From: Echinarachnius parma
Lineage: Eukaryota > Echinodermata > Echinoidea > Clypeasteroida > Echinarachniidae
Assembly: GCA_037951105.1 (NCBI GenBank)
Contig: JBAMJV010003139.1
Location: 62,001-126,000 of the forward strand
DNA: 64,000 bases
Reading direction: 5' to 3'
Below are positions 6,501 to 24,500 of the stretch, in pieces. The translations under genes were made by a program, and so were the position numbers. Every line of letters starts with the position of its first letter. The stretch's first letter is position 1. The notes under the pieces were generated by a model. That model was given only the letters and a program-made list of their open reading frames with translations. It was not told the DNA's origin and did no database searches.

Positions 6501-9500
6501 CTCCATCTCGCACCTGAGAATAGAACAGAGAAGGGATAAAGTTGTAATGGGAGACATCTTCGAAGACAAGGTAGAAAACCAGAGCAACAGACAAAAGGTA
6601 TTGTAGCTTCATCTCTCACACGAAGGCGGAAAGAACTACACAGATGATCTAATTACATTTGAATTAACTAAGTTTAATACTATGATTTGATAAAAAGAGA
6701 AGAGTTATATGAACAGATAAAAGTAAAACAATTCTTGTATAAGAAGAGAAATTATTCTTCTAAAATGATATGCAATCAATTACTATTGTCACATCAACTG
6801 CAAATGTAATGCAGAAAGGAAGATACATGTATCTGTGTTGTTTAGTCAACTCTACTTTGATTTGTTTTATATTTGTTAGAATCTGGTGCTATTATATCAA
6901 TATGTCAACCGTTAATTTGTTCCCTACTGGATTTTGCAATCCCAGAGAAATAATACAAGCACTTTCTCCACTCCCTTGGGAGCATTCCAGCCATTACTCA
7001 CCTGCTCATCAGAGAGCATGGTCAGTCTCTTCCACTCCCCGTCCACTGCTCCAGTGTCTTCTTGTAACACCTTTCTGCCTGATATACCACATCGCCATTC
7101 TATTGGAAGAAGAGAAAAATATAAATCAAATATCAATTATAAAATTGTAAAAACACACCAGCTTACAATCGTCAGTCAATAATTGGATAATTGAAATTAT
7201 TTTATATAAATGAGTTGAAGTCATACGTGTACAAAATGCTTACTAATTAGTAAGAATTTGTTGTTGCCATCACTATCATACAATGACTCCAAAATATTAT
7301 CAGATTATCACTCCAATATATACACTCATACCAAGTCGAAAATTTAACAGTTAACCAGTTCTCAAGATATTGCCAGAACACTTTGTTGGCGGAGGCACAA
7401 AAATCAACAAAATTAACTTTTGATGCTTACCTAAATCTAGTTCTTCTTTGGGAGGTCTGTGGCTGTGTGGTGTTGTTCTGTAGAGGGAGTCAAGGATCTT
7501 CTCCTTGACCTGTGACACGGAGTCACATGTGTGAACTTTGACCTGTTGGGGGTCAGCGTCTTTGTCCAGGCCAATGGCGTAGATTGTCTGTTGGAAGGAT
7601 ACAAGAAAACCATGAAGAACAGTGCATAGATATTAACACACTGTCATTTTCATAATTTTCATCAATATCATAAATATTTTTATTAATACAATTTCATCAC
7701 TGTCATCACCACTGTGGTTCTAATGGTCACCGTATGGATCAAAATGATTGTCTTAATTATTTTTGTTGATGTCGTCATCATCATCATCATCATCTTTATC
7801 AATATTATCTCATCATCAATGTCAATATCTTAATCATCATCATCATCACCGTCACCGCCATTGCCATCGCCATCACCATCATCATCATCATCTTCAACAA
7901 TTGTGTATCTTAATGAATGAACAAAACTCAATTATGCACCACCATTATCACCTCTTCCTTAACAACCTAACTCTGAAAGAAACCTCAACACAAATATTTT
8001 CAAAGCCAAACTCACCAGAGTCTTGTTATCAATGGTCTGTCTGATGATCTTGGCCTCGCTGAGTCCATAGCGTGCCTCTCCCGTGATGGAATCAATTGGA
8101 CCCATCTCTACTTGTTGCTTGATGCCATAGTACAGAGTGAAGAGGGGTTCTCCTGCACTCTCCAACATGAAGTTATAGAGCAGGAACGACAGCCAGTTGC
8201 TCACCATTTTTTCTGCTACCGATTCATTTCTGAGAAACAAAAAGAAGTGGGGTAATAATATTAAAATCAATTTCCCTATATTAATTTATTTGAATAGGGT
8301 GAAGAAGGGTTCTCTTGCACTTTCCAAATCTTTCCATCATTTACCCATTCTCAACCAATGACCAGCATAAGGTTGATTTTAATGCTAGTGATTTGTAATG
8401 ATAATCAAGAGCCTGCTGGCCCGGGGGCCACTAGAATTAGCTCTGGGCCACCAAAATTTCACTAATGCCAAATTCTACTTGCCCTATTGGGCAAACAAAT
8501 TAACAGAGTTTGTAATGTATTTCTTTGTTAGAGGCCATCAAATTCACATTACAGGCCACTGAAATTTTAGAAATCTTTATTTTACTTGCCCGACTGGGCC
8601 ACAATATTTGTTCTTAATTTCAAGCATGTATGAATCCAAGAATGTGTAAATTACCTTCTCATGAGCAGACGTGCCCTGTCTTTCTCCAGATGTTTCTCAA
8701 TGAGTCGTTCCAGTAGCACCTTCATGATATCTGTAGCATAGTCCATCTTCCCTTGGAGGATCACCATGAGCAGGGACGCCACGGCGCTCACATCACGCAG
8801 GTTGAACGAGCGCTGCTCCTCCAGGGTTTGGATCAGGCAGAGTAGGAAGGTCTTGTTGTCGATCAGCTGACCTAGCATCTGGAGACCACGCTCTGCATTT
8901 GTCTTTCTGTCCCGTGGAAGCTGGTGAAATGGAAGTAAAAATTAAGATATTAACCATAATACAACTTTTAGAATGTCACACTAACTGTTATTGCTCGTAA
9001 GGGTTTATGTCAAGCGTTAGGGAGGTCCTGTTGTCGATCATCTGAAGACCTTACTCTGCATTTGTCTTTCTAGAAGCTAGTGAATTGGCAGTTAAAATGA
9101 AGTTATTATTAACCATAATACATCTTTTAGAATGTCACATTGACTGAATTGGTATTGCTCTTCTAGGGTTTATATCAAGCATAAGTAGAAGAGGCTGTGT
9201 TCTGTCATGAATACAAAAATGAAATATGATAATTGTATATTTATTAATTGCAACTAAATAAACAATTATAAATTTGGATTGTGTACAAAGAAAACGAATA
9301 AGATGGTGACACAAATAAGGGGAGGTGGGAGTCTGTGGGACTTACCGGCATTTCTCTCAAGACGGGATGGTTAGGTTGATCAGGGAACATGGTCTTCATG
9401 GCATAGATGTGGTAGCTATAGAATGGGATACCGCAACCAAGGTCACTCGTCACTGTGTTAACACTGGTCTGTAGCTCAGCAAAGGCTGTGGAGAAAGAAA

Positions 9501-21500: not shown

Positions 21501-24500
21501 CGCCCACCATTTTAGCAACTTCGATTCCTCTACCCCTAAGGATGATTCCTGCCATGTTTGGTTGGAATCTAATCATTGGTTCTGGAGAAGAAGATGAAAA
21601 TGTATATTTCCTATGGTAGGGCCCCCCAAAAAACTGTTACGCCCACAGGGCCCTTGTGGGGCCACCCACAAAAATCTTGTGAACAACTTTCATTCTTCAT
21701 CAATAGAGGCATCTACATATGAAATATCAGGTCTGTCATACTTCTGGATCTTGAGAAGAAGATGTTTAAAATTTACATATTTTTTACACTTGGTGCCCTC
21801 CTCCAGGGCCCCCCTGGGGGCCACGCCCACCATTTTAGCAACTTTGGTTCCTCTACCCCTAAAGATGATTCCTGCCATGTTTGGTTGGAATCTAATCATT
21901 GATTCTGGAGAAGAAGATGAAAATGTATATTTCCTATGGTAGGGCCCCCAAAAAAACTGTTACGCCCACAGGGCCCTTATGGGACCACCCACAAAAATCT
22001 TGTGAACAACTTTCATTCTTCATCAATAGAGGCATCTAAATATGAAATATCAGGTCTGTCATACTTCTGGATCTTGAGAAGAAGATGTTTAAAATTTACA
22101 TATTTTTTACATTTGGTGCCCTCCCCCAGGGCCCCCCTGGGGGCCACGCCCACCATTTTAGCAACTTTGGTTCCTCTACCCCTAAATATGATTCCTGCCA
22201 AGTTTGGTTGGAATCCGATCATTGGTTCTGGAGAAGAAGATGAAAATGTAAAAAGTTTACGGACGACGGACGACGGACGACGCACGACGCACAACGCACG
22301 ACGGACGACGGACGACGGACGACGGACGACGGACGAAAAGCGATCACAATAGCTCACTTGAGCCTTTGGCTCAGGTGAGCTAAAAAAAGGAACCTGTGAT
22401 TTTAAATGTTAAATTTATATCAGAACAAATAGCCATAAAGGAAAATTAAAGTGATGTTTGTTTAACAATAGCAGCTTTGATGTGTTTTTGACAACTAAAA
22501 TGCATTTAACCATTTAGGACTAATCCTTAACAAAATCATGGACTGGACTCTATGTTGCATCACAATCAAATACTATTCAAAGAGTTAATATCTAAACAAG
22601 CTGAAGAGAAAACAGCTAGCAAAAAAAAAGAACTGACCAAATGGTCAATCATTCATGAGGCCAACTGAATTTCCCAATCAAAAATTTATCTCCATTTGAT
22701 GCACTGGGATTGATAAATGTGTGAATAATTAATGGTTTCAAGGATTTGTGTGTGTGTGTTTGTCAGTGTGTATGTGTGTATGCATGCATGTGTGTGGGGT
22801 GACTTTACTATTCAAAACAAATCTTATAAAGGCCTGTGAATATATGAACACAGGCATTCTTCAATATAAAGCAAATCTGTAAATTAAGAATGAGGTTTGA
22901 CCAGTTGTTGGAAGGTCAATCATCTAAATACCTAAATAGAGGGTTCATTCCTTAAAAACACATTGCCTACCAGATTCTATTTGGTCCTGTATTAGCTCTA
23001 TGGGATTACAAAAGCTAGTTGGGAACAGGATGAATAGGCCTTTGGTAATATACATTATATGCGGGGTAGCAGGAATCCAGATGACAGAGATGCATGGCTG
23101 GCGAGAGGAAAGCATCAATAAATGACCAGGTCCTCTGGGATGAATGAATACTATGCCCTCACTCTCTCACACTATCAGCTGGGATGGAGATCCACAACCA
23201 AAATTTAATAGCAGCATTTCTAGCTATAGGCCTACTTAAATGCAACTGACTGGCTTAAATTCACACTGGAGGTTTATGTAAAACAATGGTTTAAACCATG
23301 GTTGACAACTGCTGAGTGGCACTTGTAGACAAGTAAAGTGAGGAAATCACCTTTGCTAATTTCTTATGATACTTGATGGCAGTCGCTGGTATTTAGACCT
23401 CCCTTTCTTTGTAGTCTACCACAGACTTGTATGATATGGTCATCTGCACCACTACCACAACTAAAATATGATATGTGACTTACTGAAGCAGATGGCACTG
23501 CAAGAGGCCCTCATTGACTCTGGTTGCTGGTATGCATGGATACCTTCCTTCCCTCGTAGTCTATACATGTAGCACACATTTGTAGGATATAGTCATCTCT
23601 ACCACTACCACAACGACCATCACCACTACCACTATCAGCATCAGCAACAAATAACATGAAAGGTGACTTACGGATGCCGACTGGCACTGCAAGAGGCCAC
23701 CATTGGCAGCTCTGGTGGCAGGTATGGACACTTCCCTTCCCTCGTAGTCTAGCACACACTTGTACGGTATGGTCATATCCACCACTACCACCATCACTAT
23801 CATCATCAGCAACAAATATCATGAAAAGTGACTTACGGATGCAGATTGGCATTGTAGGAGGCCCCCATCGACTCTGGTTGCTGGTATGGATACCTCTCTG
23901 CCTTCATAGTCTAGCACACACTTGTAGGATATGGGTTGTCCATCCGGCAAGGTCTGTGAGTGAATGCAGGAAAGTGTAAGAATAAAAAGAATATAATCAT
24001 TATGTAATAAAGGTTCAACATAATTATAAAAGATTAAGAGTAATAACAGAATGTTATACAAATGCAACAACAAACAAAGTTGCTCACGTTATCAGGGTAG
24101 AACATAAATTCAACTGTCTATTATAGTTACTAATGAGTTGAGCTGGACATGTAGTAGGAATATATATTCCCACTATAAATCATATTATGACACGACAATA
24201 AAGAGGGGGAAGGAGAACAGGGGGAGGATAAGACATGAAATAAGAGGAAAACATATTGGAATATAAGAAAGACAGAAACATTAGTGGATTTCTAAAGAAA
24301 GAATAAAAAACAGTTATTGTAAAACAGAATATAAAAGAGCATGAACTAGAAGAAGGACATTAAAAAGGAGATGGAGAGATAAGGATGGGGGGGGGGGGGG
24401 GGGGGGGGGTGTGAACGTACCTCTCCTCCTGGCAGGTTTGCTGTCCTCACAGAGAATGCCCTCTTCACTCCAACAGGGATGAGAACCTCTGTGTCGTTGA

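What the first reader, a model, noticed from the sequence alone, without database searches (positions are those of the whole stretch)
8655..23953. Plexin exons repeatedly flanked by broken tandem copies of their own edges
Six exons of one gene each have one to three adjacent copies that cover one exon edge plus the adjoining intron: two 3'-edge cases near 18.1 and 23.6 kb with donors kept, three 5'-edge cases near 9.0, 12.1-12.4 and 15.7 kb with acceptors kept or degraded, and the coil exon near 9.9 kb. Copies range from nearly identical to barely visible, so the process has continued over time. Seen directly: the matching coding words and splice sites. Inference: a local tandem duplication process that keeps producing half-exons, which could seed new or alternative exons.
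Basis: partly seen in the sequence, partly recalled or inferred. Interest (0 to 1): 0.78.

Follow-up and report, generated by a model that had tools for sequence, protein, structure and literature searches.

The report
Half-exon copies from local tandem duplications
Several exons of a plexin gene really do have broken copies of one edge lying in the next intron, but similar small duplications are spread through the introns and through other genes of this animal, so they look like by-products of ordinary local duplication that happen to land on exons rather than a process aimed at exons.

Summary
The gene is plexin A, minus strand, modelled here as 24 exons. A second, colinear contig of the assembly (C1329, probably the other haplotype) carries five of the six, lacks the X13 copy, and has copies of its own at X1, X18 and X20. 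So the copies are not assembly errors as a class, and duplication continues.

The exon focus does not hold. Local duplications cover 12.1% of exon and 13.3% of intron bases here, 16.0% and 15.5% on C1329; exon edges covered are 6 and 7 against 5.8 and 6.7 for random placement. Of 33 exons sampled from other genes, 15 have a partial copy. All 24 informative copies lie on the side that head-to-tail duplication predicts (9 plexin A; 10; 5).

Two residues deserve follow-up: copy offsets peak at 150-199 bp (34 of 74; 18 of 25 touching exons), and one copy of exon X3 shows coding constraint. Best reading: frequent, untargeted local tandem duplication.

The parts
3470..34980 (-). Plexin A gene, exons X1-X24 as modelled (ectodomain PSI/IPT part, TM, cytoplasmic GAP part to the last coding exon); upstream exons not modelled
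   Evidence: phases chain, no stop in the joined frame; PDB plexin-A1 E 1.5e-206 over residues 674-1280, plexin-A2 E 1.9e-86 over 4-442
23837..23953 (-). Exon X3 (phase 0-0), source of the 3'-edge copies
23635..23772 (-). X3 copy 2: 3' part of X3 with donor at 23672; reading frame intact; coding constraint
23484..23614 (-). X3 copy 3: frameshifted by insertions and mosaic of X3 and copy 2 (both by eye); donor at 23484
23382..23461 (-). X3 copy 4: degenerate, in-frame stop read by eye
18328..18421 (-). Exon X4
17965..18139 (-). Downstream copy of the X4 3' edge plus intron, donor at 18088
15379..15527 (-). Exon X6
15594..15738 (-). Upstream copy of the X6 5' edge with acceptor at 15721; 2-bp deletion, no donor part
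11832..12012 (-). Exon X10
12087..12365 (-). Upstream copies of the X10 5' edge: two recent (acceptors at 12130 and 12249), one older at 12332-12365 (acceptor-like site at 12384)
10098..10329 (-). Exon X13 (transmembrane and coil)
9879..9994 (-). Downstream copy of the X13 3' edge; absent from the other contig
8655..8920 (-). Exon X15
9018..9180 (-). Upstream copy of the X15 5' edge, acceptor degraded
34772..34980 (-). Exon X1; has an upstream 5'-edge copy only on contig C1329 (51-bp match, acceptor side aligned by eye)
7002..7099 (-). Exon X18; has a downstream 3'-edge copy (97.8%, offset 158) only on contig C1329
5828..5997 (-). Exon X20; has a downstream 3'-edge copy (96.8%, offset 219) only on contig C1329
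15168..15369 (.). Local duplication wholly in an intron (offset 97)
16919..17187 (.). Local duplication array wholly in an intron (offset 68)
30641..31280 (.). Local duplication wholly in an intron (offsets 190, 327)

Best explanation
Frequent, untargeted, local head-to-tail tandem duplication of short stretches (typical offset about 170 bp) acts in this animal's genome, in introns and exons alike. When a unit crosses one edge of an exon, the intact exon survives beside a truncated copy, upstream if the 5' edge was copied and downstream if the 3' edge was. The copy keeps one splice site at first and then decays; its exon part stays recognisable longer because its partner, the real exon, is held constant by selection. 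Shown here: the copies, their difference between two contigs, equal exon and intron coverage, occurrence in other gene families, the side rule. Inferred: that the events arise in error-prone repair of nearby breaks (fill-in or templated synthesis followed by end joining), that they are genome-wide beyond the loci sampled, and that most copies have no function.
For: Coverage of exon vs intron bases 469/3868 vs 3711/27832 (window) and 619/3868 vs 4960/32032 (C1329); edges covered 6 vs 5.77 and 7 vs 6.70 expected, P 0.53 and 0.52. In other genes 15 of 33 non-redundant exon cores have a partial copy, none the whole core; core coverage 21.0% vs flank 14.3%, bootstrap interval of the difference -0.019 to 0.161. 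Side rule: plexin A 9 of 9 (X1 by eye), myosin and other plexin loci 10 of 10 informative, 5 uninformative, kinesin 5 of 5 pairs by the larger missing end (two of the five may be one locus on two haplotypes). Difference between contigs: 5 of 9 plexin A edge copies shared, 1 window only, 3 C1329 only. Four shared copies tested predate the split (orthologous site patterns 12, 30, 4, 8 for X3, X4, X6, X15, against 0, 0, 1, 1 within-contig; X10 not tested). One-sided decay: exon part 50/632 vs intron part 58/493 differences (P 0.03); codon positions 1+2 20/420 vs position 3 30/212 (P 7e-5) (nine alignments; 14 of the 30 come from X3 copy 2).
Against: Exon coverage in other genes leans upward, and more plexin exons than expected have a covered edge (6 vs 4.15, 7 vs 4.72), though neither is significant. 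Offsets of exon-touching duplications differ from the rest (KS P 9e-5), which pure chance landing does not predict. In 9 of 14 scored cases, the young pairs L057, L059, X18 and X20 among them, the stretch between the copies shows no clear match to either flank, so they are not clean head-to-tail repeats. Five of 21 tested rows have more synonymous differences than one-sided decay predicts.
Confidence: 0.85

Rival explanations
1. An exon-directed process: something about exon edges (splice sites, R-loops, exon-positioned nucleosomes) attracts breaks, so that half-exons are produced preferentially.
For: Exon-touching offsets cluster at 150-199 bp (18 of 25) more than the others (16 of 49), KS P 9e-5; coverage 21.0% in exon cores vs 14.3% in flanks of other genes; exons with a covered edge 6 vs 4.15 and 7 vs 4.72 expected, P 0.21 and 0.16.
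Against: Plexin exon and intron coverage equal on both contigs, covered edges as random; bootstrap interval of the difference spans zero.
Confidence: 0.08
2. Some copies are, or recently were, functional alternative exons; local duplication feeds them. X3 copy 2 is the candidate.
For: X3 vs copy 2: 14 synonymous, 2 nonsynonymous over 30 codons (pS 0.64, pN 0.03); copy 2 on the two contigs: 5 synonymous, 1 nonsynonymous, P 0.004 against neutrality; frame open on both. X3 is phase 0-0. Copies L024, L028, L033 and L055 are also rich in synonymous differences.
Against: Window copy 2 has no in-phase AG upstream by eye; C1329 has only weak ones. The L028 copy has a frameshift and one of the L055 copies a stop codon by eye. 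X3 copy 2 was picked after seeing all copies. Old copies are visible only if constrained, so detection favours this pattern (inference).
Confidence: 0.2
3. The copies are internal repeats of transposons or satellites inserted beside exons.
For: The 323-bp array at 21407-22250 and some clusters with many members (13 for L043_0) look like elements.
Against: The copies contain the plexin coding words; genome searches with the 371-bp X6 stretch including its copy, and with X15, returned two places each, the two contigs (the tool scores best candidates only).
Confidence: 0.03
4. Assembly artefact: haplotypes or reads stitched in tandem.
For: The assembly appears to hold two versions of many loci; the X13 copy exists on one contig only, as do those of X1, X18 and X20.
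Against: Five copies are on both contigs, four of them with orthologous differences; the X13 copies differ at 17 of 116 aligned sites; the X18 duplicate has 23 extra bases at the junction and by eye is not simply the window allele.
Confidence: 0.04

Closest known systems
Repair-mediated proximal duplications (Pace et al. 2009, PMC2671141; abstract and sections 6, 7, 10 read)
   Same: Local, short (proximal class mean 162, median 147 bp), continuing and polymorphic; can copy exon-intron boundaries (4 of 824 donors partial exon/intron); filler at junctions.
   Different: There pairs within 50 bp of each other were excluded as tandem, donor and acceptor lay within 5 kb with a seeming peak near 1.2 kb (which the authors call a possible artefact), and cases were sought only inside transposons; here offsets are about 170 bp and order fits head-to-tail. 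Density looks higher here, but the methods are not comparable.
Small tandem duplications from fill-in of staggered breaks and end joining (Schimmel et al. 2021, PMC8355091; abstract and introduction read)
   Same: Head-to-tail duplication of a short stretch at a break with overhangs.
   Different: The introduction speaks of insertions under 100 bp; here the offset peak is 150-199 bp. No break chemistry can be read from old copies.
Small segmental duplications in Drosophila (Li et al. 2019, PMC6380325; abstract only)
   Same: Frequent, small (83.4% under 500 bp), mostly strain-specific, thought to be removed by selection.
   Different: Found as polymorphisms genome-wide; the abstract does not speak of half-exon copies.
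Intron gain by tandem duplication (PMC4974935, PMC3443670; search listing only) and tandem exon duplication (recalled)
   Same: Tandem duplication touching coding sequence with splice sites.
   Different: Those give new introns or whole extra exons; here one edge only, and the modelled protein is unchanged.

Membership tests
Local tandem duplication | Direct orientation, adjacent, beyond chance | tested here: met
Local tandem duplication | Truncated copy on the side predicted by head-to-tail order | tested here: met
   24 of 24 informative cases: 9 plexin A, 10 (5 more uninformative), 5 (one cut at both ends, two possibly one locus)
Local tandem duplication | Copies abut without foreign DNA | tested here: inconclusive
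   X10 and X15 abut; of 14 scored gaps, outer-flank homology z above 3 in 4 (L067, L019, L017, X1), match to the exon side in X13, none clear in 9
Repair-mediated proximal duplication | Filler, microhomology or small deletion at the junction against an empty site | tested here: inconclusive
   X18: 23 bp between the copies absent from the window allele; X20: 157 bp; which allele is ancestral is unknown
Repair-mediated proximal duplication | Dependence on break-repair enzymes | not testable with these tools
   needs experiment
Exon-targeted duplication process | Duplications denser at exon edges than in introns | tested here: not met
   (P 0.53, 0.52; per exon P 0.21, 0.16); interval spans zero
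Tandem (alternative) exon duplication | Whole exon copied with both splice sites | tested here: not met
   0 of 9 plexin A edge copies, 0 of 15 in other genes; random placement gives none with P 0.155, so absence is not itself significant
Tandem (alternative) exon duplication | Coding constraint on the copy | tested here: inconclusive
   met for X3 copy 2, suggestive for 4 more of 21 rows, not for the other 16
Tandem (alternative) exon duplication | Copy spliced into transcripts | not testable with these tools
   no RNA data held

The most novel reading that the evidence does not exclude
In this genome short tandem duplications are cut to about one nucleosome repeat (offset peak 150-199 bp). 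They load genes with polymorphic decoy half-exons, of which those closer than about 150 bp to the real exon are weeded out because they would be mis-spliced, while a few, such as X3 copy 2, come under coding constraint and pass through a life as alternative exons.
Probability: 0.25. Interest if true: 0.72.

Novelty: new variant of a known kind. Interest (0 to 1): 0.45.

Why it matters
The mutational class is known. What would be worth knowing is its weight: in the loci examined, 12-21% of bases lie in recognisable local duplications and 15 of 33 sampled exons of other genes have a partial copy close by; in plexin A 4 of 9 such copies differ between two contigs. That makes a natural test bed for how splicing ignores near-perfect decoy sites, for how duplicate exons start, and for whether chromatin spacing sets the length of tandem duplications. 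It also warns annotators: protein-homology searches on such genomes pick up fragments that are not exons (plexin; kinesin).

Tried and rejected
Rejected: chance similarity; transposon origin of the edge copies (within the limits of that search); exon targeting; strong gene conversion between exon and copy (within-contig shared sites 0, 0, 1, 1 for X3, X4, X6, X15). Use of the X10 decoy acceptor at 12249 as an in-frame 79-residue extension: the frame is open in the window (ORF 12299-11814), but the corresponding C1329 offsets 253 and 122 are not multiples of three; the oldest C1329 site (offset 390) was not examined for an open frame. A paralogous plexin as donor of X3 copy 2: the protein search found only the two contigs (nine matches at E up to 0.1).

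Detection bias as cause of the offset peak: in simulation detection is 0.83-1.0 at and above 100 bp, 0.77-1.0 at 80, 0.3-0.67 at 60 and nil at 40; a first, larger run timed out. The first grouping of clusters merged unrelated loci and was dropped. The 55-value and 49-value versions of the 'other' class differ because assigns a cluster to exons if any redundant member touches one; I report. It still counts the threshold pair at X16 and two far pairs (353, 1128 bp) among the 25. Rows dropped: L012 (cut by a contig end), redundant loci, and the ten loci of plexin A itself; L036 (exon part too short); X3 copies 3 and 4, the 34-bp X10 copy and X1.

The organism was not identified: a mollusc haemocyanin domain search found nothing and its own controls were silent; a bindin search did not complete.
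Full report
What is there. The window is G000:C3138:62001-126000 of a 1.2-Gb assembly. On the minus strand lies a plexin A gene. I located 27 coding cores, chose splice sites by a simple consensus score and obtained 24 exons, X1 (34980-34772) to X24 (3576-3470), whose phases chain and whose joined translation has no stop. Against the PDB its cytoplasmic part matches plexin-A1 (E 1.5e-206, residues 674-1280) and its outer part plexin-A2 (E 1.9e-86, residues 4-442). The real exons are therefore known, and the modelled protein needs none of the copies. 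Exons upstream of X1 were not modelled; three cores near 39 kb were seen but left out.

The six cases are real. Local self-alignment gives scores of 94 to 340 for all six exons; 20 shuffles that keep local composition never exceed 35. X6, X10 and X15 have 5'-edge copies upstream; X3, X4 and X13 have 3'-edge copies downstream. Some splice sites in the copies are as strong as the originals (X10, X3 copy 2, X13), others weaker (X6, X4, X15).

A second contig, C1329, is colinear with window 1-43047 at 73-97% identity per block, most blocks 91-97%. Each of two exon probes returned just these two places in the genome (best candidates only). I take it as the other haplotype; a very recent duplicate is not excluded. 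It shares the copies of X3, X4, X6, X10 and X15, lacks the X13 copy, and has copies of its own at X1 (5' edge, partly by eye), X18 (3' edge, 97.8% identical, 23 bp between the copies) and X20 (3' edge, 96.8%, 157 bp between). Thus 9 of 24 exons have an edge copy on at least one contig and 4 of the 9 differ between contigs. Four-way site patterns show that the copies of X3, X4, X6 and X15 are older than the split (orthologous sites 12, 30, 4, 8; within-contig sites 0, 0, 1, 1). Assembly error is therefore unlikely for these; for the four one-contig copies only raw reads can decide.

Are exon edges special? Not detectably. In 3400-35100 there are 13 clusters of local duplications, 7 touching an exon (one at threshold). 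They cover 12.1% of exon bases and 13.3% of intron bases; on C1329 16.0% and 15.5% (15 clusters). Random placement of the same footprints gives 5.77 covered edges (observed 6, P 0.53) and 6.70 (observed 7, P 0.52). Counted by exons with a covered edge, 6 against 4.15 (P 0.21) and 7 against 4.72 (P 0.16). No plexin A exon is copied whole, but random placement gives none in 15.5% of trials, so no selection need be invoked; geometry may be enough, since a unit of length u and an exon of length e overlap at one edge in 2 min(u,e) of u+e positions.

Is it plexin-specific? No. Of thirty loci around myosin-head exons 13 had a local copy overlapping the exon match, and one shuffle of each locus gave no pair at all. 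After merging redundant loci and leaving out plexin A, 15 of 33 exon cores (myosins and other plexins) have a partial copy; 11 are one-edge, 4 lie inside the matched core, none is whole; coverage is 21.0% in cores and 14.3% in flanks, difference interval -0.019 to 0.161. Cores are profile matches, not full exons. In a kinesin search of 134 matches, five pairs of neighbouring matches repeat the same profile positions.

How it works. In a head-to-tail duplication that crosses one edge, a 5'-edge copy must lie upstream and a 3'-edge copy downstream. This holds in 9 of 9 plexin A cases, 10 of 10 informative cases of other genes (5 uninformative) and 5 of 5 kinesin pairs (one is cut at both ends but more at the predicted one, and C12482 and C1423 may be one locus on two haplotypes). 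Copy-and-paste to a random side would give one half. Yet in 9 of 14 scored gaps the stretch between the copies matches neither flank clearly, so junction filler or later replacement is common; in 4 the outer flank is still homologous (L067, L019, L017, X1; z 3.2-4.6) and in X13 the gap matches the exon side. Divergence fits a one-sided decay: exon parts 7.9%, intron parts 11.8% (P 0.03); codon positions 1 and 2 4.8%, position 3 14.2% (without X3 copy 2 the latter are 17/355 and 16/179). This also explains why exon copies catch the eye: they stay readable longer. Break repair as the cause is inferred from the literature (PMC2671141, PMC8355091), not shown.

Offsets. Among 74 non-redundant clusters (from 60 loci, the window and C1329) the offset between copies falls in 150-199 bp in 34, against 11 in 50-99, 13 in 100-149 and 7 in 200-249. 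Detection is nearly flat from 100 bp upward. For clusters touching exons the figure is 18 of 25, with one below 150 bp; for the others 16 of 49, with 23 below 150 (KS P 9e-5). A length near one nucleosome repeat is suggestive, and a filter against close decoy splice sites could remove short offsets at exons; both are inference.

Coding constraint. X3 and its copy 2 differ at 14 synonymous and 2 nonsynonymous positions over 30 codons (pS 0.64, pN 0.03). Copy 2 on the two contigs differs by 5 synonymous and 1 nonsynonymous (P 0.004 for neutrality), and its frame is open on both over 31 codons. But by eye its 5' end has become simple repeat, and in the window haplotype no in-phase canonical acceptor is left. 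I read it as an exon copy that was translated for long and may be dead in this haplotype. Over 21 rows tested, 5 have P below 0.05 against one-sided decay (X3 copy 2, L024, L028, L033, L055). The L028 copy is frameshifted and another L055 copy has a stop by eye, so present function is not implied; old copies are visible only when constrained, which favours such cases. The test assumes equal rates and was made after the fact.

Verdict. The half-exons are the visible part of dense, ongoing, apparently untargeted local tandem duplication, a known kind of mutation. Literature searches (two without results, several showing only the first 8-15 of a longer list) brought up no title or abstract start describing half-exon copies at such density or nucleosome-sized tandem duplication; the library lacks most subscription journals, so this is no proof of absence from print.

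Noticed in passing
window 21100-22390: Intronic repeat with a 323-bp unit (2.6 copies, 96%) followed by an ACGGACG minisatellite; looks like a mobile element. C1329 lacks the stretch 21100-22383.
   Followed up: partly
window 45731-46861: Long reading frame made of a Ser-Ile-His-Pro repeat, by eye an ATCC-type microsatellite of roughly 900 bp.
   Followed up: no
window 36933-37925: A 330-residue open frame on the minus strand upstream of X1, not plexin-like by eye; perhaps from a mobile element.
   Followed up: no
window about 5700-5770, 11545-11620, 18525-18600, 24730-24795: A dispersed element of about 75 bp recurs in introns of the gene (the last in inverse orientation), seen by eye.
   Followed up: no
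window 17965-18139 and C1329 orthologue: The X4 copy is identical on the two contigs (0 of 167 aligned sites) while the X4 exon side differs at 13 of 167; perhaps recent exchange between haplotypes.
   Followed up: partly
G000:C1329:325183-330648 and G000:C2377:85649-91583: A second plexin gene about 210 kb from the first on C1329, with its own half-exon copies (L055).
   Followed up: partly
window 24387-24409: A run of 23 G about 11 bp from the X2 donor, likely length-polymorphic.
   Followed up: no
L028, L033, L055, L024: Upstream 5'-edge copies of myosin and plexin exons with acceptors kept by eye and mostly synonymous differences, some with frameshift or stop; why is not explained.
   Followed up: partly
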